IMG/VR virus record: IMGVR_UViG_3300036790_000826
Coordinates: 1-52,985 of that record
From: a virus
Direction: 5' to 3' (one strand)
Length of the DNA stretch: 52,985 nt
Shown: positions 99 through 45,188 of the stretch, piece after piece
Position numbering within the stretch: position 1 is the stretch's first letter
Layout of the letters: each line of letters opens with the position of its first letter
The notes under the pieces: generated by a model
What the model was told of the DNA's origin: nothing
Seen by the model: the letters and a program-made list of their open reading frames with translations, nothing else
Databases searched by the model: none
Program-made: the position numbers and the translations under genes

Positions 99-2681
99 CT
101 ACGAGGCGACTGACCGGACGCTTACGAGCTTGCCGACGCGCAGGGCTTCGACGGCAGCGACGCCGCCGTGGTTGGCCACGTCCTGCTCGTTGAAAACGAC
201 CTCGCGGCGGTGGACGAGGCCAGCGACTTCATCTGAGTCGCCGTTGCCCGTATAGCCGCCGACCTTGAATAGAGCCATGCCTTGCACGGCTGCCATCGCG
301 CCGCCCACGGCGACAGGGGCCATGGCGGCAGCGCCGCCCCACGAGGCGATGGTGGCGAGGGTCGCAGGCGCAGCCCAAATGGCAGACATACCCATTGCGG
401 TCGCTGCATTGGCGGCTAGCGCGGCAGCACGCAGGGAATTGCCCAAGGCGAATTCGATCACCTTGCGGGCAACCCACTGGACCGAAGCCTGAACGATGGC
501 CTGCACAACCTGCGTCGTGATCGTCGAAGCGACCGAGGCGAGGGCCTGATGCCACGTTTTGGTTTTCATTATCAACGCGGTGATGTTCGAGGACACCGAG
601 TTGAGGGCTGAATTCATCACGCCGGAAATCTCCGAGCCGATGGACTTGAAGCTGTTCGTGAGCTTCACGAGACCGGAGGTCATGTCGCCAAAGAACGAAC
701 CCGGCGCGGTCTGGGACATTTCCTTGGGCAGGGTGACCTGCTGGCGCTCCTGGAGCCGCTTTAGCTCGTCCTGCGCCTGAGCCTTGGTTGCGGACCCATC
801 AGGCTCCGTCTCGACGCGCTTCTTGGCGATGGCGATGTCCTCGGCGATTTGCTGCTCCTCGCGCTTATATTCGAGGTAGAGCAGTTCCTTCTTTTGCCGG
901 TCGGTCAGATACTCGTCCTCTTTGATCGAATCGACGGCGGCTTGGTCGGCACGCTGCTGCTCCTGAGAGGCGGCAGAGCGCTTCGCGGCAAGTTCCTTCT
1001 CGGCCTGTTTCTCCTTTTTGTCGGCGGCCTCCTGCGCCTTTTTGTTCTCCGCTTCCTCGGCCTTAGCCTCTGCATCCTGCGTCGCAAAAATCTCGTGCTC
1101 CACCTGCGCGATCTTGCCCGCCATTTCGAGACGGAAGGTGTAGGCGGCCTGCTGCGCCTCGCTCTGCTTGGACGGGTCGCTGGCCTCGTTCGACCCAAGG
1201 TAGCGCTCGGGCCGCGAGTCAGGGCCGTTGAGCTGCGCCGTCAGCGAAGCCTTCTTCGCGAGGAGCATGTTGATGTATTCGGACTTGTCGGCTTCCTTGA
1301 AAGCCGCCTCAACGCGGGCCTCCTCCTGCGCCTGAATCTCGGGGCCTTTCTTGACCAACGCATCGCGGGCGGCTGCTGCCTCGCGTGTAAACGCTGCGGC
1401 GCGTGCCTCCATTTGGGCCTCAAGGTCCTTCTGCTTGTTCAGCTCGATCTGCTTTTGGCCCTCGGATTGGAGAAGGGAAAGCCGCTGACGGGTCAGGTCG
1501 ATCAACTCGACGATATTGCCCGTTGACGTATTGTCATCATCACCAATGGCACTGCCCGAACTGGCGAGCTGCCTGATGTTCTTCCATCCTTGATCGGTTG
1601 CCGAATCTATATCGGACTGACTCCGCACGTTATCGGCCTGAGCGCTGAATTGATCGAATTGCTTGCGACCAGCAACAGCCTCCTGCTGCGGCCCTGTCAG
1701 CGGCTGTCTTCCGTCTATAACGTCCGCAAGATCAGTGAGCTGGCCGATGCTCGCTTGCGCACCCAAGGAAAGGAATCTGACGGTCTGTTTAAACGCATCG
1801 CTGCTCGTCAGCGCTATGAGGGACTTTAGCAGTTCCTTGTAGGAAACAGCGAGGTCTGCTGTCGCGTCAGAAGCCGACTGCGCCGTCGTAGCGTTCAGAC
1901 GCTCTTGCAGGATCGTGATGTTCTCCGCGCTGGCCGTCACAGCCTCGGTGAAAGCGTGGAGCTTCTGATTCAGAAACTCGTAGAGCTGGCCTGCCTCGCT
2001 CGCGGCCTTGAGGTCGGCGTCGGTGATCCCGAGGCTGCGCCCAGCGACCGTGCGGTTGGCGACGCCGTTCAGGATGTCGGCAATGTCGCGGGTCGCCCTG
2101 AAACCTTGGATGCCGAGCGTCGTCATCGCCCGGTTGAGCGTGACAGACAGCTCGATCTGCTTGTTGAGGTCGGTGATCCCGCCCTTGAACATAGCACCGA
2201 CCGTGGCGGTGTACTGCTCGGCCAGGGCGGGGAAGCTCAGGCCGAACTGAGCCGACTTCGCCTTGAGCTTGTCGATGACATCGCCCGATGCCTCAAGGGC
2301 CTGCTGGAAGGTGTGGTAGCGCTCAGGGTCGAATTCTTGGAGGGCTGCCGCGATGCCTGTCTTTGCGTTCTCCATTTCCGCCGTGAACTGGATGCCCTCA
2401 GAGAGGACACCCTTAATCGCGCCAGATATTGCTCGGACAGCGGCGACAACACTCATCGCAGCAGTCGCGCCTGCCGTTAGCCCTGCGCCCATTCCGAAAC
2501 TGCCAAAGAATTGCTCGCGGAACGTGTCGCCGAAGCCAGCGGCCTCCTTAGCGGCAGCATTGATGCCGCCCATGGAGAACTTGGCTGCGTTCTGGAGGTC
2601 GAGGAACGCTTCCTGAGCTTTCTTTATGCCCTCCAGATTTGCACTAACCTTGAGGAGAATGTCTGCTTGTCCGTCGGCCAT
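99..2681 (-). CDS. Phage tail tape measure protein (remnant phage)
   Basis: An 860-residue protein with the tape-measure layout. An N-terminal segment is followed by a hydrophobic Gly/Ala stretch (about residues 55-95), a long charged helical region rich in Ala, Glu, Lys and Gln (about 400-640, coiled-coil-like), and a hydrophobic C-terminal part with SAIWAAP and a GGYTGNG segment near residue 820. The protein would set tail length and pass through the membrane at infection. The C-terminal 100 residues are clearly like those of the second tape measure in this window (42141-45188), for example SAIWAAPATLATIA against SAIWAAPAALATIA. It is the last gene of a minus-strand series starting near 4757. 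No other tail gene is visible beside it, so this is a remnant or a satellite. Confidence 0.8.
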   Translation of the reverse strand: MADGQADILLKVSANLEGIKKAQEAFLDLQNAAKFSMGGINAAAKEAAGFGDTFREQFFGSFGMGAGLTAGATAAMSVVAAVRAISGAIKGVLSEGIQFTAEMENAKTGIAAALQEFDPERYHTFQQALEASGDVIDKLKAKSAQFGLSFPALAEQYTATVGAMFKGGITDLNKQIELSVTLNRAMTTLGIQGFRATRDIADILNGVANRTVAGRSLGITDADLKAASEAGQLYEFLNQKLHAFTEAVTASAENITILQERLNATTAQSASDATADLAVSYKELLKSLIALTSSDAFKQTVRFLSLGAQASIGQLTDLADVIDGRQPLTGPQQEAVAGRKQFDQFSAQADNVRSQSDIDSATDQGWKNIRQLASSGSAIGDDDNTSTGNIVELIDLTRQRLSLLQSEGQKQIELNKQKDLEAQMEARAAAFTREAAAARDALVKKGPEIQAQEEARVEAAFKEADKSEYINMLLAKKASLTAQLNGPDSRPERYLGSNEASDPSKQSEAQQAAYTFRLEMAGKIAQVEHEIFATQDAEAKAEEAENKKAQEAADKKEKQAEKELAAKRSAASQEQQRADQAAVDSIKEDEYLTDRQKKELLYLEYKREEQQIAEDIAIAKKRVETEPDGSATKAQAQDELKRLQERQQVTLPKEMSQTAPGSFFGDMTSGLVKLTNSFKSIGSEISGVMNSALNSVSSNITALIMKTKTWHQALASVASTITTQVVQAIVQASVQWVARKVIEFALGNSLRAAALAANAATAMGMSAIWAAPATLATIASWGGAAAMAPVAVGGAMAAVQGMALFKVGGYTGNGDSDEVAGLVHRREVVFNEQDVANHGGVAAVEALRVGKLVSVRSVAS

Positions 2682-4757: not shown

Positions 4758-5331
4758 AGGTTCAAGGAAGTGGCATTGAGTTGGTGGAGCTGTACACCAT
4801 GGCTCTAATGTCGCTTTGGCGTCGTTTTGGGGCGCGTGCCTGATGGCGTTTTCGTGGTCGCCAAGAGAGCTGCAAATCGCGCCTCGTGCGTCCTATGGGA
4901 ATGGCCAACTTTGCCATTCCTTTGGCTCTTGCGGCCTTTCGCGGGCGAAATTGGGTCCCCAATGAGGGTCTGGGCTTCAAAAGACCAAGGAATTGGTCAG
5001 AAGTCCCAAGCCAATGCCCCTAGAGGCCCAACCCAGCGGAATGTATCAATGGCAACCCATAGAGCGAAAAGCGCGCCTTACTCTCGGCCAGCGACCTGCC
5101 CCGGCAGCCAAGCGCAACATGGGACTCCCATTTTTTCATCGCATGCAGATGACAAGGGCCCTCGTGGCGGAACCAGCCCGCCGGGGGTGGGCCAAAGAGA
5201 TTCCTTAGGGGGGCAGGCCCTAGAATTAATGCAGGGCTACGTTCGTCGGTGGAACGGCGCGAACACCCGGCCCCGTGACGAGACTTGAGTCGCTGCAGCT
5301 TCGCGCTCTAGTACCCGCCCAAAGAAACCCG
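4758..5331. other. Intergenic region between the phage remnant and the PIN gene
   Basis: 574 bases without a convincing gene. It must hold the promoter of the leftward remnant operon. A perfect 8-bp hairpin is visible: GGAATGGC at 4898-4905 pairs with GCCATTCC at 4913-4920 across a 7-base loop; it could be an operator or an attenuator. Frames on both strands through this stretch have shuffled-looking composition and no ribosome-binding site. Confidence 0.5.
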
Positions 5332-5763
5332 ATGGGCTACATGCTCGACACTTCAGTCTTCAACCGGATTCTGCAAGGCCGCCTTGCGTTGGAGGCCGTG
5401 CCTTATGATGGAGGGATCTTTGTCACCCAGATCCAAAGCGACGAGCTGACCAAAACCGGCGCCAAGGACGAGCAGCGAATGAAGGACCTTTTGGCTGTGC
5501 TAGCGACGCTCGGTCCAATGACGATTCCTACCGAGACGGGGGTGGTGGGCTACGTCAAAATCGGTGAATTCAAGATTTCCAGTGGCGTGAAGTTTTCTGA
5601 AATCAAAGCCGCGATGGAGCGAATTCAGCCGAAGAAAGATCACACAAACGATGCGCTCATTGCGGAGGCAGCCTTGTTGAACGGCCATACCCTGGTAAGC
5701 TCCGACAAGGCACTTTGTGCGGCCTTCGAGGAAATCGGCGGCAAAGTATATCGAATCGCTTGA
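5332..5763 (+). CDS. PIN-domain protein (putative RNase)
   Basis: A 143-residue protein from the ATG at 5332 (MGYMLDTSVFNRIL). The PIN hallmarks are present: a first Asp in LDTSVF (residue 6), a DE pair in IQSDELTKT (37-38), an Asp-containing NDALIAEAALLNGH helix, and a terminal Asp in SSDKAL. PIN proteins are metal-dependent ribonucleases, often VapC-like toxins. No VapB-type antitoxin is visible next to it, so it may be an orphan effector or not a toxin. An in-frame upstream ATG at 5275 exists, but only the later start places the first catalytic Asp where PIN domains have it. It lies convergent to the defence-like operon. Confidence 0.75.
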   Translation: MGYMLDTSVFNRILQGRLALEAVPYDGGIFVTQIQSDELTKTGAKDEQRMKDLLAVLATLGPMTIPTETGVVGYVKIGEFKISSGVKFSEIKAAMERIQPKKDHTNDALIAEAALLNGHTLVSSDKALCAAFEEIGGKVYRIA

Positions 5764-6122: not shown

Positions 6123-6767
6123 CTACTTCATTCCGCTCAATGCCGCCTCAGCGAGATCCAGAGCATGAAGTGCCTGCCTTGCTGTCGTTGCGTGTGGCGT
6201 GCCGACCTCATCCGCAACAATCCGCTCCCATTGCGGACGACACCTTGCGGCGTAGGCTCTGAACTCCGCCTCTAATATTGCTTTTTCGCGGAGCCGCTTT
6301 AGCAATGGGCGATTGAGTCTAAGGATTCTGATTTGATATTCTGCAGGCGGCTTAAGCGCATTTACGGTCCCATCGCCGTCGACTTCAAAAAAGTTCAATC
6401 GATTTTCGATGAAAGGCTCGATCCAGCCTTTTTCACCATCGAAAGGCAAAGAGGGATCCTCTGTTGGCCAATGGTCACTCTTGAATCTATTACAGATCCC
6501 ACAGGAATGAACCAGGTTTTTAGGATCGTCGCGCAGATGCTCAAATCGCCTCTCGTTATTCGGACCAAAGGGCTTGCGCCACGGGCGAAAATGATCGGTC
6601 TCCATGCCATGTATGCCGCCGAATGAATCTTGGTGGCTACCGCAGTACCCGCAGTACTCGCGGCAGTCTTCGGAAATAGCCACCCGGTATCTCGCATAGC
6701 CATAATAAGCCCCATCGGGCCTAGTCTCATACGGGTCTCGTCGGGTGAGAGGTCCGAAATAGGCCAT
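6123..6767 (-). CDS. HNH endonuclease
   Basis: A 214-residue protein with a zinc-supported HNH nuclease core: Cys39-x2-Cys42, the ETDHF segment with Asp58-His59, Asn84 in the KNLVHSC stretch, and Cys89-x2-Cys92-Asn93. This spacing is typical of HNH proteins of restriction and defence loci that cut double-stranded DNA. The C-terminal 80 residues are helical (an EYQIRILRLNR segment follows a conserved-looking W/F-rich linker). Its ATG comes immediately after the stop of the receiver gene, which argues for coupled translation. I infer it is the nuclease effector of the operon. Confidence 0.85.
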   Translation of the reverse strand: MAYFGPLTRRDPYETRPDGAYYGYARYRVAISEDCREYCGYCGSHQDSFGGIHGMETDHFRPWRKPFGPNNERRFEHLRDDPKNLVHSCGICNRFKSDHWPTEDPSLPFDGEKGWIEPFIENRLNFFEVDGDGTVNALKPPAEYQIRILRLNRPLLKRLREKAILEAEFRAYAARCRPQWERIVADEVGTPHATTARQALHALDLAEAALSGMK

Positions 6768-7403
6768 CTATAGAGGTAGATTGCCCGCCCTAATCAGGCC
6801 TTTAACAGTTTCCACAGCTCTTGCTAGATTCTGCTCCTTTGCTCTCTCTTCGGCGAGAACAGCCGCCGTAGCCTCCCCCTCAAGTCGGTCCATTTCGGTT
6901 TGCTCCTCAGGTGTAAGGGCTTCGCGCAGGCTCTTGACCAACAAATCATGAAATCGGCTTTCTCGGTCGTTGCGGACGTCGTTAAACACGTCCAGATGCC
7001 GAAGCATTCTCGCTTTGACTGTTTTCGCCTCCTCGCTATTCGCGTCCTCAATATCCTCCTTTCCGATGATGTTTTCGACCAGGTGCTCGCATCCTGCGAA
7101 GTCTTGGCGCTCTCTCGAATGACCTGTCAGAATATATATGGGCATCTTCCCGTCTATGCCGCGTAAGTGGCTCGCGAGATCTGTCCCATTGTATCCAATA
7201 CCACCGCCTTTCATTCGTTGATCTAGAATGAAAGCAGCCGTGTCTGGCTTAGCTAGAAGCTCGTTGTAATCTGCCATAGCATGCAATGGCTCTTGGGCTA
7301 TTACTTGAATTTCCGGGTTGTCCAATAGGCTAATAAGGCCCCGAACATTGGCACGCCGAGCTGCCGCGTCCTCGTCGACAAAATAGATCCTGTTTCGCTT
7401 CAT
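6768..7403 (-). CDS. Response-regulator receiver protein
   Basis: A 211-residue protein with a receiver domain in residues 1-120: acidic pair Asp10/Glu11 (FVDED), phosphoacceptor Asp61 (AFILDQRM), Thr93 (YILTGHS) and Lys115 (NIIGKED). The remaining 90 residues are charged and helical (around TPEEQTEMDRLEGEATAA), with no HTH or other output domain that I can see. Output may therefore be by protein contact rather than by DNA binding. Its start overlaps the stop of the ATPase/kinase gene by 4 bp and the HNH gene follows without a gap, so the receiver sits between sensor and nuclease both in gene order and, by inference, in signalling. Confidence 0.85.
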   Translation of the reverse strand: MKRNRIYFVDEDAAARRANVRGLISLLDNPEIQVIAQEPLHAMADYNELLAKPDTAAFILDQRMKGGGIGYNGTDLASHLRGIDGKMPIYILTGHSRERQDFAGCEHLVENIIGKEDIEDANSEEAKTVKARMLRHLDVFNDVRNDRESRFHDLLVKSLREALTPEEQTEMDRLEGEATAAVLAEERAKEQNLARAVETVKGLIRAGNLPL

Positions 7404-9751
7404 GTCTGGTTCTGTTTCGCGGCTTTGGGAACCTTGATTTCGAATCCTGCTCCGCCCAAGTCCCCGCGATCTTTTGCGAAGATACTACCTCGCGCATGAT
7501 CCTCAACGAATGATTTCACAATGAAGAGACCCATTCCGGTACCGAATAGCTCACCACGTCTATTGCGCTTTGTACTAAAAGCGGGTAGAAAGATCATATC
7601 TTCGGTCCCTGCCTCTAGACCGATTCCACTGTCGTCAAAATTGAGACGCCACTCGTTACCCTCATCGACAATTCCCGCACGTATGCGGCGCTTTTCGGGA
7701 ACAATATCCTCCAATGCCCATGCGGCATTTGTAATCAGATTCACCACGATGCTTTCCCAATCCATTTCGTATCCAAAGATTTCGCATGCATTCTGCGGCA
7801 TCCCTGTCAGATCAACCTTTGTGTGACGCTGAATTCGCAACACCTCGTCAAATGCTTCGAATACGTCGCTGACCGTTTTCTTAAGGTCGAACTCCCGTTG
7901 CTGTCTCTTGGTTCTATTCAGATTTCCCAGTGTGAAGCTCGCGAATTTACGAACCTTCTGAGCCTCATCTGACGTATCCTGCAGCGTCTGGGTGATTTCG
8001 GCTTCAACCTGAGGGAGAACCATGAAAGATCCCTTCTTAAAGCTCTCCAAGAGCCATTTAGCATTCTTAACAACCGTTCCCGTCCAGTCCAAAGTCTCGT
8101 GTCCGAACGATGCTGCTAATATTCCTAATGACGCGAGATTCGCCATTGTGTTCTTCTGGTCTTCCGCGTCGCGATATAGCTTGGTCGATTCGGCTAAATC
8201 TAGGCGGGCCGTCTCCAACTGCTTTTGAATGTCCTCAATGACCTCCTTAAATTGCCAGTAGGACTCAGGCAGAATTGTCTCGATGGGCGGCGGCTCAGTG
8301 AATTTGGGCAGTTGGTTGGCAATGTCGCTTAGCTTCTTAAGCGCTGAATCAGCACCATCTAAGGTACTGCGAACCTTATCTTCAGCGTTTTCGAGAGGGG
8401 CCTGTTGCTGCTTAAGCGATATCTCGTAAGTCTGATGATGAACTTCGAAAAATTGAATAACTCGCCGCGCAAAGACGGCCAGGTGATCGAACGCTTTGCC
8501 CTGGAGTAGCCCTTCGCGGTTCGTTTGATCGTTCAACCCTGAATTCCGCGCATGGGTGATGAAGACGGCGCCCGCTACCTGATTGTATCCGACCCTCCAG
8601 TTGCCGGGCTTTGCGTCTTGAGCGACACCTTCCGGATTGACCATTCGCCGATAAGCTAACTTCAGCCAATCGCCACTTCCGTCCGGCTCACCGTAAGGCT
8701 TTACCCTAAAGCCATCGCGATAAATTCGGACACCTTGATTGTACTTCAGGAAATTCGCGATTTCCGCAGCCCGAAGCGTCTTCGACGCCAGCTCCACATC
8801 GCGTCGAACAAAGAAATAGAATTCCATTTTCAGCGGGCCACAATGGGGCCTGACGCCCTGTTTCTTAACGAAATCACTCCACTGAGTAGGCTTGAGTGAG
8901 TACCCGGTGCCATGTCGTGGGGACGTCATACTGATTTCCACCTGATCCAAATCGTCCAACGTCGCTACCACATTCCACGTAGCCCCCTCCAAGAGGGGCT
9001 CCGGAATCGGTACTGGTCCGTCCAAGCGCACGAAAGCGCCCCCGGTTTCCATTCGTATCGAGAAATCATTTGGTGCTTGGAATGGCGAAATAAGCAAAGC
9101 CAGCTCATTTCGTAATGCACCAATCGATTCCTCGTCCCATAGATCTTTGAGGCCACGCAAGACAAGGCGTGTGCCCTTCGGATAGTCGATCCAATCTCCA
9201 GAAATCGGATCAAGCTTTAGATTTGGTATGCTAAATAAGTCGTGCTCGACCTTTTCCAGACGGGCATCGCCCGCAACGTAGCGTCCCCAGTCTATAACTA
9301 GACGAACCCCTTCCCTGGCGTTCTCCTGAATTGAATCAATCTCAGAGACCGAACAGAGCCGGTCCAATCCTAAGCGGCCTAGTCCCTTTTCTCCGGTAAC
9401 AACCCGTTCCTTCCTAGTCTTTCTGCGTTCGGCTTTGTTAGCGGTACCGATGACCATCCAGAATTCCTTTAAGCTCTCGATTGTCATACCGTCGCCAGTG
9501 TCCTCGATGACAATTATAGCTTCTGGCTTCCCTAGATTTGCGAAACGTATGCGGACCTCGGTTGCATCGGCGTCGTAGGCATTTTTCACCAATTCCACGA
9601 TTGCAGTAATTGAACTTGAAATGCTCTCACGTCCCAACTGAAGGGCAACGCGAGCACTAACTGAAAACGAAGCCGTACCTAGTTTTGTCGGACTCTGCCG
9701 CACCAATTCCGACGCTGGATCACTCGTTCCCGGATCATTCATTTCTGCCAA
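7400..9751 (-). CDS. Dual GHKL ATPase: MutL/Hsp90-like N-terminus with C-terminal histidine kinase
   Basis: A 783-residue protein with two separate GHKL ATP-binding modules. N-terminal: the N-box ELVKNAYDADAT (53-64), G1 IEDTGDGM (82-89) and G2 TGEKGLGRLGL (119-129), as in MutL, MORC and Hsp90. C-terminal: an H-box-like ASFGHETLDW with His551, an N-box NLITNAAWAL (671-680), G1 DDSGIGL (706-712), an F-box-like FSTKR (about 725) and G2 GTGMGL (737-742), as in sensor kinases. A coiled-coil-like stretch lies between (about 450-540). There is no membrane segment, so it acts in the cytoplasm. It overlaps the methylase upstream by 13 bp and the receiver downstream by 4 bp. It probably senses DNA or foreign replication by an ATP-driven clamp and phosphorylates the receiver; the sensing part is inference. 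Confidence 0.85.
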   Translation of the reverse strand: MAEMNDPGTSDPASELVRQSPTKLGTASFSVSARVALQLGRESISSSITAIVELVKNAYDADATEVRIRFANLGKPEAIIVIEDTGDGMTIESLKEFWMVIGTANKAERRKTRKERVVTGEKGLGRLGLDRLCSVSEIDSIQENAREGVRLVIDWGRYVAGDARLEKVEHDLFSIPNLKLDPISGDWIDYPKGTRLVLRGLKDLWDEESIGALRNELALLISPFQAPNDFSIRMETGGAFVRLDGPVPIPEPLLEGATWNVVATLDDLDQVEISMTSPRHGTGYSLKPTQWSDFVKKQGVRPHCGPLKMEFYFFVRRDVELASKTLRAAEIANFLKYNQGVRIYRDGFRVKPYGEPDGSGDWLKLAYRRMVNPEGVAQDAKPGNWRVGYNQVAGAVFITHARNSGLNDQTNREGLLQGKAFDHLAVFARRVIQFFEVHHQTYEISLKQQQAPLENAEDKVRSTLDGADSALKKLSDIANQLPKFTEPPPIETILPESYWQFKEVIEDIQKQLETARLDLAESTKLYRDAEDQKNTMANLASLGILAASFGHETLDWTGTVVKNAKWLLESFKKGSFMVLPQVEAEITQTLQDTSDEAQKVRKFASFTLGNLNRTKRQQREFDLKKTVSDVFEAFDEVLRIQRHTKVDLTGMPQNACEIFGYEMDWESIVVNLITNAAWALEDIVPEKRRIRAGIVDEGNEWRLNFDDSGIGLEAGTEDMIFLPAFSTKRNRRGELFGTGMGLFIVKSFVEDHARGSIFAKDRGDLGGAGFEIKVPKAAKQNQT

Positions 9752-11115
9752 ATTCGAATCGAGGCAATCGACTCAATGGTCAAATGGCGGCAACGAATGC
9801 GCCTGTTTAGGTGTCGATTGGTCTCTCTAGTCTTGAGAACGCGAAGCAGTTTTCTGCACGTCGCCAGTTTTCGATCTTTTGGCTGACAGACTATCAAGTG
9901 ATTCTCAACTGCGACTTCATCTGCACCCGTAATGATCGTAGCGGCAGCGCGGTAGGCGTGTTCGGGACGCGAAGTGCGACGGATGGCGACAAATGGAGTT
10001 TGGTGGATGCCGCCTGAAAATCTGACGCTTTCTGGAAACGACTTCATTTCCTTCCACGGCGGAACGCATCGCGGGTGAATGTAAGGATAGCGCGGGCCGT
10101 TTTCCTCATTTCTGAAAGGCACGACTCGGCCAACATTGACGGCAAACAAGCTGCCAACTGTGGCTTTTGAATTTCGATACTCCGGCCACCTCTTTAAGTT
10201 GGGTTCCGATCTTTCCCTCTTACGGAGATGCACAAGGAATACGTCTATGTCCGCGCTTTCGTCGAAAATGCCGAAGGGCTTTACCAACATTATTTGAGCT
10301 CTCTCGCCCACATGTTTTCTCCACTTTCTGTAATTGGAGCCCGAACGTAAAACCTCCGGAAGAATTGCTAGAATTTCTCCACCAGGGGTCATTCGGTCCA
10401 ATGAGTTGTCGAGGAATATTGCAGCCATTGAGACTTTGCCACGGCCCCACGGACATTTCTTCGGCGCCCTCCCCAATCCGAACGGTGGATTAAGCAAAAT
10501 GTGTGTTGGGTCCGTTGCACCGACTTTGGGTGCGAGGCCGTCCGCCTTAAGAATGTTCGGAAAGTAATCCCGCCAATTTTTGGGAATAGGACCAAAATCC
10601 CGTTTCCTTTGTCGTGCCAACAAGACGAGACGGTTCTTCACCGCATCAATAAATTCAGAGTAAACATCGCAGCCGCTGAGCAGCCCGCCCCACAGCTTCA
10701 GGGTTCCTTCGACGGTGCCGCCAAGTGGGAGCTTTTGCGCTGCCGCTAACAAAAGGTCCCCAGCCCCACATGCCGGGTCGTGGATCATTAACCCCTTACC
10801 ACGAGGTCGACTCAGGTGTCCCAAGAGTTCTGCGGCCAAATGAGAGCCAGTAAAAAAAGTCCCCATTTTTCGCCGCTTAGAAAGCCCGACAACTTTGCGG
10901 AGCTCTTCCGCCGCCTGACCATTTAACGAAGCATCCACTGCTGTATGCCAGGCTCGGTCGTTTCGTGGCTCAATCGCTAGCTTTTCAAGCGTGTCGACGT
11001 ACCGGCGGTAGCAAGCTACCGGAGAATTACCTTGGCGCGTCTTGGGTAGCATGGGCTTCTGAAAGCTAACACTAACTTCCGATGCAGGAAGGCGAAATTT
11101 TCGCCACAGGGTCAC
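9739..11115 (-). CDS. N6-adenine DNA methyltransferase (HsdM-like)
   Basis: A 458-residue protein. Motif I, the SAM site, is DPACGAGDLL (113-122); the catalytic motif IV is NPPF (209-212); the order I then IV fits gamma-class N6-adenine methylases of the type I/HsdM kind. The FFTGSHLAAELL segment before motif I (86-98) matches the usual HsdM lead-in. After residue 330 there is a region that could recognise DNA, but I see no separate specificity subunit. Its start overlaps the upstream small gene by 4 bp (ATGA). It likely marks host DNA as self for the HNH nuclease. Confidence 0.85.
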   Translation of the reverse strand: MTLWRKFRLPASEVSVSFQKPMLPKTRQGNSPVACYRRYVDTLEKLAIEPRNDRAWHTAVDASLNGQAAEELRKVVGLSKRRKMGTFFTGSHLAAELLGHLSRPRGKGLMIHDPACGAGDLLLAAAQKLPLGGTVEGTLKLWGGLLSGCDVYSEFIDAVKNRLVLLARQRKRDFGPIPKNWRDYFPNILKADGLAPKVGATDPTHILLNPPFGLGRAPKKCPWGRGKVSMAAIFLDNSLDRMTPGGEILAILPEVLRSGSNYRKWRKHVGERAQIMLVKPFGIFDESADIDVFLVHLRKRERSEPNLKRWPEYRNSKATVGSLFAVNVGRVVPFRNEENGPRYPYIHPRCVPPWKEMKSFPESVRFSGGIHQTPFVAIRRTSRPEHAYRAAATIITGADEVAVENHLIVCQPKDRKLATCRKLLRVLKTRETNRHLNRRIRCRHLTIESIASIRIWQK

Positions 11116-11376: not shown

Positions 11377-12183
11377 CTAAAAAAGACTCTTACTCGGGCG
11401 ACTGCTGGACGGTCCTCGCTTGCGGGCAAATTTTTTGGCCAGCCCTTTGGCCAGTCCTGCCACTCTATCTCCGCGCTCCTCGATTATTTCGACAAGGGCG
11501 TGTTCGAAAACTTCGAATGCATCGAGCAGGTCATCCCGAGAAAGCTTCGAATTATGGCTTCCTGCATTCCCAAGCCATTTCAAAGCCATTAAATGGTCTC
11601 CAACGAGCGGAGAATTAAGTTTGAATTTGGCCAACCGGGCGTGGAGCGACAGTTCTACGAGCCTATTGTGTTGATTCCTTCCCCATCGCTTTACCTTTGA
11701 ATGATCCATTAGCGCTTCGAGGGCCATTCGAAGGCGTCCGGCAGATGCCGGACGATCTGATGCGTAGAGAGCAAATGCAGCTGCTAGGCTCTCCTTTACG
11801 CTTTCAGGGCAAGATTCAGGCACTTTGAAGAGGGGCGGCATTGGATGCCAAAAGAGCGGTTCGAAATAGTCGTCCCAATCCCAACCCTCCGGACTATTCA
11901 CCTGCTGGACGCCGCCCTTTCCTGCAATTGCGACTTTCTGCTTACACTTTTGGTTTACGCAGGTCGCCCAGGCGGTGAATCGGTAATCAGTCCATTCAGG
12001 ATCGAATTCATCATCTGCATGGCCTATTTTCGACTGAGCCGTTTCGTAGATGATTAGCGAATTCGGAACCAGTTTTAGCGTTCCCGTCGCGCAAATGGGA
12101 CATGGCCACGCAGCACACCCGTACTTGTAAAGATTCGTCGTCCAAAGCTCGCGCTTCATTTTGCCGTACTCGACGTCATCCAC
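11377..12183 (-). CDS. Zn-ribbon protein with DUF4145-like domain
   Basis: A 268-residue protein, first gene of the operon. Residues 28-85 hold a probable zinc ribbon (CPICATG, later CVNQKCK). Residues 130-240 look like the DUF4145 helical domain (an ALYASDRPASAGRLRMALEA stretch, then LKWLGNAGSH), which is known from the N-terminus of many HsdR restriction subunits and from stand-alone defence-associated proteins. The C-terminal tail is basic and Ser-rich. The context suggests an accessory subunit of the restriction complex. A later start at Met9 is possible. Confidence 0.75.
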   Translation of the reverse strand: MDDVEYGKMKRELWTTNLYKYGCAAWPCPICATGTLKLVPNSLIIYETAQSKIGHADDEFDPEWTDYRFTAWATCVNQKCKQKVAIAGKGGVQQVNSPEGWDWDDYFEPLFWHPMPPLFKVPESCPESVKESLAAAFALYASDRPASAGRLRMALEALMDHSKVKRWGRNQHNRLVELSLHARLAKFKLNSPLVGDHLMALKWLGNAGSHNSKLSRDDLLDAFEVFEHALVEIIEERGDRVAGLAKGLAKKFARKRGPSSSRPSKSLF

Positions 12184-14540: not shown

Positions 14541-15338
<798 letters not shown>

Positions 15339-41990: not shown

Positions 41991-42157
41991 CCCACAGCCC
42001 CAAGGACATCCAACGGTACATCTTCGAGCGAGACCGCTACCATGCACGGCGCCAGCTGGAGCTCATGGAAAGCTGCCTCCTCGGGATGGTCGGCGGAGAC
42101 GACTACAACGCGGCCGCGACAAAGCTAATCGAGATCATCGATGCCGAGCCTGGTTGA
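41792..42157 (+). CDS. Tail assembly chaperone, frameshift extension (gpT-like)
   Basis: The -1 frame from the slippery site encodes 121 residues, with a Cys-containing helical region (FDELCAYARRCVDRWEGDAW) and a final helix with an acidic end. An internal ATG at 41840 could also start a separate 105-residue protein, but the gpG/gpGT analogy favours production as a fusion that binds the tape measure through this extension. The end overlaps the tape-measure start by 17 bp. Confidence 0.6.
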   Translation, partial: SLGPRHRDARSGDGPEMWDVDPGDSDIIRTFDELCAYARRCVDRWEGDAWRACASGFCAGDQSKVLTHSPKDIQRYIFERDRYHARRQLELMESCLLGMVGGDDYNAAATKLIEIIDAEPG

Positions 42158-45100
42158 ACTCATCATCAGCGCCGTGGGGGCCGAAGAGGCCGGCGCGGCC
42201 GTGCAGGGCATTTCGGCCAAGGTTAAGGAGCTGGCATCCTCCCTCAGCGGCGGCGGCCTAAAGAGCACGACCGACTTCTCCGAGAAGCTGGAGGACGTGT
42301 CTGGGGTGATGCGCGACATGGTGTCGCCCGCGCTCTCGGACACGACGAAGCAGCTCCTCGGCCTGGCTGCCGCGTCGCTCTCGGTGGGCGCGGTATATAA
42401 TTCCGTTAAGGACCAGATCAGCCAGGGATCCGACTTCGTCCAGCTCTCTCGCCGGACGGGGGAGAGCGTCAGGGACCTGGTCATCCTGCGCCAGGCGTTC
42501 ACGAATGCCGGGCTCGGCGCCGAATATGTGGGAACGGCCGCGAACCTCCTGGACCGGGTCCTCAGCGGCACGACAGCGAGCGGAAGGCGCACCTCCGAGG
42601 TCTTCGAAGAGCTGCATCTGTCAATCGACAAGATGCGGACCCTCACCTTCACGCAGCAGCTGCAGGAGCTCGGGTCCGCGTTCGCCCGGCTTCCCGACCA
42701 GGCTGCGCGAAGCGGCGCAGCGATGACGCTCTTCGGCCGCTACGCCGGCGGCCAGATGCTGCAGCTCCTGGCCGACACGGATGCCTTCCGCCGGGCCGAG
42801 GCGCAGGCGGGGAGCTATGCGGACCGGATGGCTCGGGACGCGGGTGTTTTCAACGACGTCGCGCTTCGGTTCAACGCCATCAAGGTGAACATCCAGGAGA
42901 TGGCGGCGGCGGCGGCCGAGCAGCTCGTCCCGGCGCTCGATAGCGTGGCAAAGGTCGCCGGAGGAATTAACCTTGCCGGCTTGGGCAGCTTCGCCGGCGC
43001 GGCGGCTCCTGGCATCCTGGGGACCGTCGCCCTCACGATCGCTACAGACCAGGCAGACATGAAGATGGTCCAGCTGGCGGAGCGTTTCGGTCAGAACGTC
43101 GAAGGTAGCCTGCTCGGAGGTGTTATGGGCGCCGCGAGCAAGGTCACCGGGCTGCTCGCGACGGCGCTGCCCTTCGGATTAGCAGCGGTAATCGGCGCCG
43201 AGATCGTGAAGGGGATCCTGATGGCGGACTGGCAGAACACCATGGACAAGATCGACGCCGCCGGCTCGGGCGCCGACACCCTGACGAAGAAGGCCCGGGA
43301 CATCCGGACCGACGACGACCGGCAGGCCGTCCTTGCCATGGCCCAGAAGGAGCTGGCCTCGCAGGTCCAGGCGCAGGCGGACGCTACTAAGGTACCCATG
43401 TTCAGCGGACCCGGTGTGGTGCCTGGAATGGACCCACGCGCGACTGCTGGCGAAGGAAACAGCCTGCTCGCCGACAGCTACGGGGCGACGATCTCGCAGT
43501 TGAAGACGCTCATCAACGAGCTCGCCAGTCCGAAATGGGCGAAGATGACCGAGGAGCAGAACCAGGCTACCGACGCCCTTGCAAAATTCCGCACCGGAAT
43601 TGATGCGGCCGCCACCAGCTTGCCGCAGCTCAGAGAGAAAAACGATCAGCTGCAGGAAAAGGATATGTCACCCACTGACAGGGTGGCGGACCTCACTGCC
43701 CAGCGCACGCAGTTGTACTATCAAAGGGCCGCGCCGCCGCAAAAGGGCGCCAGTGCCGACGAAATCGCGACGGTCGATCAGCAGACCGACAACAAGATCC
43801 TCGACCTAACCCACCAGATCCAGGAGGCGGAAAAGCAGGTCACCGAGGAGAAGAAAAAGCAGGCGGAACTGGATGCTCACCGGCAGATATACGCTCTCCA
43901 AACAAACATGGAGAGGGCGAAGGCCGCCGGGGACCTGGAAGGCGCGCAGGCCCTCAAGGAGCAGATCGACGCGATCCGCAACAGCGTGGAGCTGCAGGGA
44001 GAGGACCTGACATTAGCGAAGCAACGGGCCGCGGCTGAGCATCAGGTATTTGAAGAGCAGCAAGCTCAGATTGCGCAGCGGAAGGCTGCTGAAGCGGCGC
44101 GTCAGGCACTGGAGGTCCAACGCACGGCCCTCGAAAATGAACTCGAAGCTATCCGTAGTCGGCTTGCTCTTTTGGACTCCGACACGAGCAAGACAGAAGC
44201 CCAAAAATGGGCCGACCGAAAGGCTGCGATCGCTGAGGAAATTAAGGATGTGGAGGCGACCATCCAAGCCGAGCAGCTCCTCGCTCAGGCGGCCGCTGCG
44301 AAGGGCGATCAAGTGGCGGCGAACCAGTACTCGGCCGAGGCCGCTAAGAACGGCGAAAAGCTCAGCGGGTTGCAGCATGAGAACGTTCAGCTGGGTCCCG
44401 ACCCGAACAACTGGGTAAAGCAGACCCAGAAATCCATGAACGACCTGCTAAAGTCGCTGGGAACGACCTCGCAGCAGATTGCCCAGTCGATCACGAGCAC
44501 GATCGGGAACGCCTTCAATTCGATCCGGGAGAACATCGTCAGGGCCATCACGGTGACTGGCGACTGGAAGCGGGCGATCAGCCAGATCGGCCTCAGCATC
44601 GAGCAGTCCCTCGTGGGCGCGTTCGTCAACATGGCGGTCCAGTGGGCGGAGAAGCTCGTCATCATGAAGGTGGAGTGGCTCGCGATGCGCCTCGGGATGG
44701 CGGCGGCGGACAAGGGTGTCGCCGCATCGAGCACGGCGGCCCTGGTGCCCCTCGCCCTGGCGACGTCGGCCATCTGGGCGGCGCCGGCGGCCCTGGCCAC
44801 GATCGCGACCTTCGGCGGCGCGGCGGCCGCGGCGCCCATGGAGATCGCGGCCTCGATGGCTGCCAGCCAGGGCCTGGCGCTCGCCTCCTCGGGCGGTTTC
44901 TTTCCCGGAGATCCCACGAAGGCCCGCGGCATCTTCCACGGCGACGAGTTTGTCCTTTCGGCGCCGGCGGTCCGCAACCTGGGCGGCGGGGCGGCCGTGA
45001 CGGCCCTCCACCAGGCGGCGCTGCAGGGCCCGGCCCAGGCCGCCGCGGCTAAGGCCATGACGGGGGGCGGCCGCACGCCGAACATTCACACGTATATCGA

Positions 45101-45188
45101 CAAGGCTGTCTTCATGCGCGCCATCGCGCCGGACGTTGAGGCGATCGCGCACACCGTCTCCATGAAGAACATTCGGCAAAACGCCTGA
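42141..45188 (+). CDS. Tail tape measure protein
   Basis: A 1015-residue protein. Helical N-terminus with a hydrophobic segment, a putative membrane stretch at about residues 335-360 (LLATALPFGLAAVIGAEIVKG), a long charged coiled-coil-like middle (450-760, with repeated EKQVTEEKKKQAELDAHRQ-type heptads) and a hydrophobic C-terminal part with SAIWAAPAALATIATF and GGFFPGDPTKA. It sets tail length and helps DNA entry. Its C-terminus is similar to that of the tape measure at 99-2681. Confidence 0.85.
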   Translation: MPSLVELIISAVGAEEAGAAVQGISAKVKELASSLSGGGLKSTTDFSEKLEDVSGVMRDMVSPALSDTTKQLLGLAAASLSVGAVYNSVKDQISQGSDFVQLSRRTGESVRDLVILRQAFTNAGLGAEYVGTAANLLDRVLSGTTASGRRTSEVFEELHLSIDKMRTLTFTQQLQELGSAFARLPDQAARSGAAMTLFGRYAGGQMLQLLADTDAFRRAEAQAGSYADRMARDAGVFNDVALRFNAIKVNIQEMAAAAAEQLVPALDSVAKVAGGINLAGLGSFAGAAAPGILGTVALTIATDQADMKMVQLAERFGQNVEGSLLGGVMGAASKVTGLLATALPFGLAAVIGAEIVKGILMADWQNTMDKIDAAGSGADTLTKKARDIRTDDDRQAVLAMAQKELASQVQAQADATKVPMFSGPGVVPGMDPRATAGEGNSLLADSYGATISQLKTLINELASPKWAKMTEEQNQATDALAKFRTGIDAAATSLPQLREKNDQLQEKDMSPTDRVADLTAQRTQLYYQRAAPPQKGASADEIATVDQQTDNKILDLTHQIQEAEKQVTEEKKKQAELDAHRQIYALQTNMERAKAAGDLEGAQALKEQIDAIRNSVELQGEDLTLAKQRAAAEHQVFEEQQAQIAQRKAAEAARQALEVQRTALENELEAIRSRLALLDSDTSKTEAQKWADRKAAIAEEIKDVEATIQAEQLLAQAAAAKGDQVAANQYSAEAAKNGEKLSGLQHENVQLGPDPNNWVKQTQKSMNDLLKSLGTTSQQIAQSITSTIGNAFNSIRENIVRAITVTGDWKRAISQIGLSIEQSLVGAFVNMAVQWAEKLVIMKVEWLAMRLGMAAADKGVAASSTAALVPLALATSAIWAAPAALATIATFGGAAAAAPMEIAASMAASQGLALASSGGFFPGDPTKARGIFHGDEFVLSAPAVRNLGGGAAVTALHQAALQGPAQAAAAKAMTGGGRTPNIHTYIDKAVFMRAIAPDVEAIAHTVSMKNIRQNA

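What the first reader, a model, noticed from the sequence alone, without database searches (positions are those of the whole stretch)
6768..9751. Two ATP-binding GHKL modules in one protein, paired with a receiver that has no DNA-binding output
The N-terminal module has MutL/Hsp90-type motifs and the C-terminal one has H-box, N-box, G1 and G2 of a sensor kinase, with His551 as the probable phospho-site. The next gene has all receiver residues (Asp10/Glu11, Asp61, Thr93, Lys115) and a helical tail with no HTH. This implies an ATP-driven conformational sensor that passes its state through phosphorylation to a protein target, plausibly the HNH nuclease encoded next.
Basis: partly seen in the sequence, partly recalled or inferred. 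Interest (0 to 1): 0.7.

Follow-up and report, generated by a model that had tools for sequence, protein, structure and literature searches.

The report
Kinase-controlled DNA-cutting defence gene set
A prophage carries a four-gene set, shared by dozens of unrelated bacteria, in which a DNA-clamp-like ATPase fused to a signalling kinase appears to switch on a DNA-cutting enzyme through a relay protein while a methyltransferase marks the cell's own DNA; it looks like a restriction system run by phosphate signalling, which to my knowledge nobody has tested.

Summary
The 783-aa protein (7400-9751, -) is a MORC-type GHKL-S5 ATPase joined by a coiled coil to a complete histidine-kinase core. The next gene is a receiver with an intact acidic pocket and a helical-hairpin tail, no HTH; then an HNH nuclease. 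Of 80 species' loci picked only by kinase similarity, 68 carry all four genes side by side; most of the rest are cut by contig ends. In 296 genomes the HNH and receiver families each occur in the same four genomes, always with kinase and methyltransferase. Kinase, receiver and HNH co-diverge (r about 0.9); the methyltransferase does not (0.6). Both ATP sites, His551, Asp61, the HNH centre and MTase NPP are near-invariant. Functional coupling is well supported; receiver-HNH contact is not (read-through AlphaFold model, pTM 0.55). A sister design (HEF_HK/Response_reg_2 beside R-M genes) was published in 2021; this family fails both profiles and differs in its short receiver, separate HNH and N6 MTase. 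Verdict: new variant of a known, untested kind, best read as a phosphorelay-gated restriction-modification-like system. I found no phosphotransfer or defence data.

The parts
9739..11115 (-). N6-adenine-type DNA methyltransferase, 458 aa; NPPF at aa 209-212 (10491-10480)
   Evidence: N6_Mtase weak (2.2e-3); PADLOC MTase_II 6.8e-8 / mad2 9.9e-13; NPP 0.99-1.00 in 77 homologues; adjacent in 68/80 loci, upstream or downstream
7400..9751 (-). Dual-GHKL kinase, 783 aa (TTG start; ATG at 9742 also possible)
9032..9688 (-). GHKL ATPase module 1 (aa 22-240), MORC-type
   Evidence: HATPase_c_3 6.6e-16; Foldseek SMCHD1 6mw7, MORC2 9cdj, MORC3 6o1e
8507..9031 (-). S5/transducer-like domain (aa 241-415) with invariant G340, R345, D346, PYG 352-354, DWL 361-363, N403, D408, R412
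   Evidence: AlphaFold secondary structure, conservation
7916..8497 (-). Coiled coil and DHp helices (aa 419-612); phospho-acceptor His551 at 8101-8099
   Evidence: helices 419-454, 456-480, 496-572, 580-609; H551 0.99
7403..7834 (-). Catalytic ATP-binding domain (aa 640-783), N-box and G1/G2 boxes intact
   Evidence: HATPase_c 4.1e-18; Foldseek CpxA, ZraS, HK853
6768..7403 (-). Receiver protein, 211 aa; Asp61 at 7223-7221; helical-hairpin tail aa 124-206
6123..6767 (-). HNH nuclease, 214 aa, PtuB-like; C39, C42, H59, N84, C89, C92, N93
   Evidence: Pfam HNH 7.2e-5; a PADLOC PtuB profile matches all 38 homologues; retron Ec78 complex chain 9nnb_J in the Foldseek list
6768..6770 (-). In-frame TAG stop of the receiver, directly followed by the ATG of the HNH gene
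   Evidence: sequence read; read-through translation

Best explanation
A four-gene, horizontally moving restriction-modification-like system, here cargo of a transposable prophage. The methyltransferase marks resident DNA (inferred from family). The N-terminal MORC-type GHKL-S5 module is a DNA-clamp sensor: ATP-dependent closure on foreign or unmodified DNA (inferred from MORC/MutL biology) shifts the coiled coil and DHp helices, so the C-terminal kinase phosphorylates His551 (site shown, reaction inferred). The phosphoryl group passes to Asp61 of the receiver (residues shown, transfer inferred), whose helical-hairpin tail then licenses the HNH nuclease (functional tie shown by co-occurrence and co-divergence; contact not shown), probably in one complex that also includes the MORC module, to cut invading DNA. 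The two ATP modules thus have separate jobs: DNA sensing and phosphorylation.
For: Four-gene linkage in 68/80 kinase-picked species loci. Reciprocal: HNH-only search of 72,556 plasmids gives 5 places, all beside this kinase; in 296 genomes HNH and receiver families have strong hits in the same 4 genomes only (E 1e-46 or better, next best 2e-10 to 2e-14), all with kinase and MTase. Co-divergence kinase-receiver 0.89, kinase-HNH 0.90, receiver-HNH 0.83 against 0.57-0.63 with the MTase; partial correlations HNH-ATPase1 0.23, HNH-S5 0.25, HNH-tail 0.18, HNH-receiver domain 0.08, HNH-MTase 0.00; receiver domain-DHp 0.25. All active sites conserved. AlphaFold kinase pLDDT 81, pTM 0.74; Foldseek pairs the N half with MORC/SMCHD1 ATPases and the C half with CpxA/ZraS/HK853. 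GHKL and nuclease both needed for defence in VcSduA (PMC12137116).
Against: No confident receiver-HNH interface (pTM 0.55; tethered chain, shallow unpaired alignment). No enrichment of strong PADLOC hits in flanking genes of 12 genomes against matched controls, so the defence role rests on gene content. Partial correlations are small and distance-based. MTase target site, phosphotransfer and nuclease activity are untested.
Confidence: 0.58

Rival explanations
1. The MORC-type module controls the HNH nuclease directly (as the GHKL domain is proposed to do in VcSduA), and the kinase-receiver arm is a brake or reset, for example the receiver tail holds HNH inactive until its phosphorylation state changes.
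For: HNH co-diverges more with ATPase1/S5 than with the kinase ATP domain (differences 0.067 and 0.073, bootstrap intervals above 0) and hardly with the receiver domain itself; VcSduA precedent.
Against: His551/Asp61 and the kinase ATP site are as conserved as the MORC site; the receiver is present in every intact HNH-bearing locus. Neither excludes a brake.
Confidence: 0.2
2. Abortive infection: the activated HNH degrades DNA without discrimination and kills or arrests the infected cell; the methyltransferase is part of sensing rather than a shield.
For: PtuB-like HNH, as used in Septu and retron Ec78; the methyltransferase diverges largely independently of the rest.
Against: A methyltransferase is retained in nearly all intact loci, with type II-like relatives, which fits self-protection.
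Confidence: 0.14
3. A conventional soluble two-component system acts on an unlinked target; HNH and methyltransferase are an ordinary R-M pair that happens to sit beside it.
For: Receiver proteins without HTH can act on distant protein targets; PF00072 is the main receiver family matched.
Against: Reciprocal all-or-none co-occurrence in 296 genomes and on plasmids and co-divergence.
Confidence: 0.05
4. Decaying cargo with no function.
For: Kinase ORF broken in a few relatives (L001, L007, L034).
Against: All four window ORFs are open with intact active sites and overlapping or abutting ends.
Confidence: 0.03

Closest known systems
HEF_HK (PF19191) / Response_reg_2 (PF19192) TCS-like pairs, Bellieny-Rabelo et al. 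2021 (PMC8011034)
   Same: HATPase_c_3 plus DHp plus HATPase_c in one soluble protein, next to a receiver gene and DNA methylase genes; homologous at a distance (HEF_HK kinases score 115-167 bits on this kinase profile, true members near 700-830).
   Different: Window family matches neither PF19191 nor PF19192 in any of 40 kinases and 56 receivers. In the seven HEF_HK loci examined, kinases are about 990-1010 aa and the receiver protein is 540-634 aa with its own C-terminal domain; no HNH follows it. Published neighbours are mostly C5 methylases and Vsr; here N6-type MTase and a separate HNH.
MORC / paraMORC ATPases in restriction-modification operons (Iyer 2008, PMC2292703)
   Same: N-terminal GHKL-S5 module by fold and motifs; R-M gene content including HNH.
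   Different: The paper's text describes helicase/endonuclease partners and does not mention a receiver; here a kinase core is fused and no helicase belongs to the unit.
VcSduA / GHKL Shedu (PMC12137116)
   Same: GHKL ATPase plus nuclease; both activities needed for defence.
   Different: One protein with a PD-(D/E)xK nuclease and no phosphorelay.
Septu PtuAB and retron Ec78 PtuB
   Same: HNH related to PtuB in sequence and fold.
   Different: PtuA-type ATPase replaced by a MORC-kinase plus receiver.
DefensePredictor HATPase/REC candidate (PMC13092281, Fig. 6F legend)
   Same: A predicted, unvalidated set of defence systems whose legend lists HATPase and REC domains.
   Different: Figure not held, so identity with this family, or even that the two domains share a system, cannot be checked.
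Detocs (from memory; paper not held)
   Same: Two-component logic used against phage.
   Different: Effector there cleaves nucleotides; here an HNH nuclease with a methyltransferase.

Membership tests
HEF_HK / Response_reg_2 TCS-like pair | HATPase_c_3 + HATPase_c in one kinase | tested here: met
   40/40 homologues
HEF_HK / Response_reg_2 TCS-like pair | PF19191 match in the kinase | tested here: not met
   0/40; profile works on control loci
HEF_HK / Response_reg_2 TCS-like pair | PF19192 match in the receiver | tested here: not met
   0/56; positive controls L109 1.1e-31 and L110 1.1e-16
Two-component system | DHp His, N and G boxes; receiver acidic pocket, Asp, Thr, Lys | tested here: met
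Two-component system | His to Asp phosphotransfer | not testable with these tools
   needs biochemistry
MORC/paraMORC GHKL-S5 ATPase | GHKL motifs followed by an S5-type domain | tested here: met
   TM-scores normalised to target 0.40-0.54, so fold-level kinship, not a named subfamily
Septu | PtuB-type HNH | tested here: met
   38/38 match PDLC00337
Septu | PtuA ATPase partner | tested here: not met
   the partner ATPase is GHKL; no PtuA match in the kinases
Type II restriction-modification | DNA methyltransferase linked to a nuclease | tested here: met
   68/80 loci
Type II restriction-modification | Nuclease and methyltransferase act on the same site | not testable with these tools
   needs methylome and cleavage assays

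The most novel reading that the evidence does not exclude
A restriction system gated by a His-Asp phosphorelay: a MORC-type DNA clamp serves as the sensory domain of a histidine kinase, and phosphorylation of a receiver licenses a separate HNH nuclease within one complex, with interchangeable methyltransferases setting self-recognition.
Probability: 0.45. Interest if true: 0.85.

Novelty: new variant of a known kind. Interest (0 to 1): 0.63.

Why it matters
Histidine kinases normally regulate genes; here the whole path seems to end on a nuclease. If true, it gives a function to the untested dual-GHKL/receiver pairs found next to R-M genes, makes a MORC-type DNA clamp the input domain of a kinase (so a DNA signal could be read out as phosphorylation), and offers a phosphate-controllable DNA-cutting system spread across many phyla.

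Tried and rejected
Single-sequence pattern scan of genomes found nothing. DUF4145 gene upstream (11377-12183) considered as a fifth part: no homologue in any other locus, rejected. Loci that seemed to lack the receiver (L016, L019, L040, L074, L007, L093) do have it, overlapping HNH. Apparent missing kinase in G216 was only a threshold effect. Defence-island enrichment: no excess over control. Other alignment designs for the receiver-HNH chain were discarded because MAFFT misplaced the receiver tails; the one used is A8. PDB sequence hits of the receiver tail to gp41 constructs are coiled-coil artefacts. No receiver-HNH gene fusion was seen in the loci laid out. The first structure prediction attempt was turned back because three rows came from annotated records; those rows were left out and replaced by loci from the search for related loci.

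Full report
WHAT IS THERE. The window is a 52,985-base virus record. On the minus strand, genes run 12183 to 6123: a DUF4145 protein, an N6-type methyltransferase (9739-11115), the dual-GHKL kinase (7400-9751), the receiver (6768-7403) and an HNH nuclease (6123-6767). Ends overlap or abut: the methyltransferase and kinase overlap by 13 nt, kinase and receiver by ATGA, and the receiver's TAG is immediately followed by the HNH ATG in the same frame. The stretch has 51-54% GC against about 57-69% for nearly all the rest of the window. It lies between genes for a transposase and a DNA-transposition protein (phrog_310, phrog_296) and a tail tape-measure gene, as cargo would.

THE KINASE. Pfam finds HATPase_c_3 at aa 47-145 and HATPase_c at aa 664-776. 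An AlphaFold model from 44 sequences (pLDDT 81, pTM 0.74) shows an N-terminal ATPase, an S5-like domain, a long coiled coil, a DHp hairpin and a catalytic domain. Foldseek against the PDB pairs the N half with SMCHD1, MORC2 and MORC3 ATPase modules and the C half with CpxA, ZraS and HK853; TM-scores are moderate because the query is multidomain. So the protein is a MORC-type clamp module on a histidine-kinase core. Over 80 loci, both ATP sites, His551 (0.99) and Glu552 (0.93) are kept.

THE RECEIVER AND THE HNH. The receiver matches Response_reg weakly (1.9e-4), but Asp61 is invariant, Asp10 and Thr93 are at 0.95 and Lys115 at 0.86; the model matches receiver structures (DctD 1qkk TMt 0.75) and adds two long helices, with no HTH. 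The HNH has C39, H59, N84 and C89 invariant in 80 sequences, matches a Septu PtuB profile in 38/38 homologues, and a chain of the retron Ec78 PtuA:PtuB:RT complex appears in the structure search.

THE UNIT. A scan of 84,980 species genomes with a kinase alignment gave 392 relatives; the 80 best were kept. ORF calling plus iterative profiles show all four genes side by side in 68 of 80, with the methyltransferase upstream in 29, downstream in 38 and convergent in one. Of the other 12, most end at a contig edge; L030, L042, L043 and L049 look like genuine exceptions. Hosts span Proteobacteria, Bacteroidetes, Firmicutes, Chloroflexi, Planctomycetes, Verrucomicrobia and others (record titles); plasmid copies occur in Deinococcus, Bacteroides, Salipiger, Rhizobium and Klebsiella. 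Bias: the seed alignment contained HNH-bearing members and only the best 80 were kept, so the figure describes this subfamily, not all dual-GHKL kinases.

RECIPROCAL TESTS. Searching 72,556 plasmid records with the HNH alone gives five places, all beside this kinase. In 296 genomes of one order, the HNH profile has four hits at 2e-51 or better and then nothing better than 2e-14; the receiver profile has four hits at 1e-46 or better, then 2e-10; these are the same four genomes, at adjacent positions, and all four have kinase and methyltransferase. If independent, the same four of 296 would be drawn with probability about 3e-9 (my arithmetic).

CO-DIVERGENCE. Over 72 loci, pairwise distances correlate at 0.89 (kinase-receiver), 0.90 (kinase-HNH) and 0.83 (receiver-HNH), but only 0.57-0.63 with the methyltransferase (permuted maxima up to 0.14). 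Splitting by domain, partial correlations tie HNH to ATPase1 (0.23), S5 (0.25) and the receiver tail (0.18), but not to the receiver domain (0.08) or methyltransferase (0.00); the receiver domain is tied to DHp (0.25), the kinase ATP domain (0.22) and its own tail (0.29). This is the pattern expected if receiver and kinase meet at DHp, and HNH touches the tail and the MORC module. It is suggestive only. The weaker methyltransferase link is what a swappable specificity partner would show.

CONTACT TEST. Because the receiver stop and HNH start are in one frame, reading TAG as a residue gives one 426-aa chain, which could be modelled. Domains fold well (pLDDT 87) but pTM is 0.55, so no relative placement is supported. 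The alignment was unpaired, with few HNH rows, and the tether may distort; this is inconclusive rather than negative. The read-through was only a modelling device; nothing suggests that the cell reads through the stop.

KNOWN RELATIVES. Bellieny-Rabelo et al. 2021 described HATPase_c_3 + HEF_HK + HATPase_c kinases with Response_reg_2 receivers next to R-M genes, mostly C5 methylases and Vsr (PMC8011034). The window family fails both profiles in all members tested although the profiles work on control loci. The seven HEF_HK loci fetched have longer kinases and a 540-634 aa receiver protein with a fused C-terminal domain; in most, a short (T/S)(P/A)ACD motif recurs, similar to TPSCD/TPACD in the long receivers beside the Campylobacter and Sinorhizobium kinases. 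So the superfamily seems to come with alternative outputs: a fused domain, or, here, a separate HNH. Iyer 2008 (PMC2292703) placed MORC/paraMORC ATPases in R-M operons; the text has no receiver. VcSduA shows that a GHKL ATPase and a nuclease are both needed in one defence protein (PMC12137116). DefensePredictor lists unvalidated candidates with HATPase and REC domains (PMC13092281). I found no description of the four-gene unit in the held library, which lacks most subscription papers and preprints.

WHAT IS SHOWN AND WHAT IS INFERRED. Shown: architecture, intact active sites, near-obligate gene linkage, co-divergence. Inferred: DNA sensing by the MORC module, His551-Asp61 transfer, HNH activation, self-marking by the methyltransferase, anti-phage role. 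Against an easy defence claim: flanks of 12 loci were not enriched in strong PADLOC hits over controls.

Noticed in passing
L110-L115 and L006, L008, L042 (receiver proteins): Long receiver proteins of HEF_HK and other dual-GHKL kinases share a C-terminal (T/S)(P/A)xCD-like motif in a region with no Pfam match; it may be an alternative effector that replaces the HNH.
   Followed up: partly
L001:8013-10283, L007:5926-8553, L034 kinase: The kinase ORF is broken into two or three frames while receiver, HNH and methyltransferase stay open; sequencing error, decay or phase variation not distinguished.
   Followed up: no
L011:11813-15055: A second, 1081-aa protein matching the kinase profile sits just after the HNH gene.
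   Followed up: no
window 11377-12183 (-): DUF4145 protein upstream of the methyltransferase, no counterpart in other loci.
   Followed up: partly
window 5275-5763 (+): PIN/VapC-like ORF (weak PIN match at its C-terminal end) beside the operon, with no obvious antitoxin.
   Followed up: no
window 14541-15338 (-): ORF with a long RWAAAA / AAAEAA repeat array.
   Followed up: no
window 99-2681 (-) and 42141-45188 (+): Two tape-measure-like genes on opposite strands; the record may hold parts of two prophages or a composite element.
   Followed up: no
window 6768-7403 (receiver tail, aa 124-206), distance analysis: The receiver tail co-diverges with the kinase ATP domain (partial 0.35) more than with DHp (0.13), unexpected if the tail only contacts the nuclease.
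   Followed up: no
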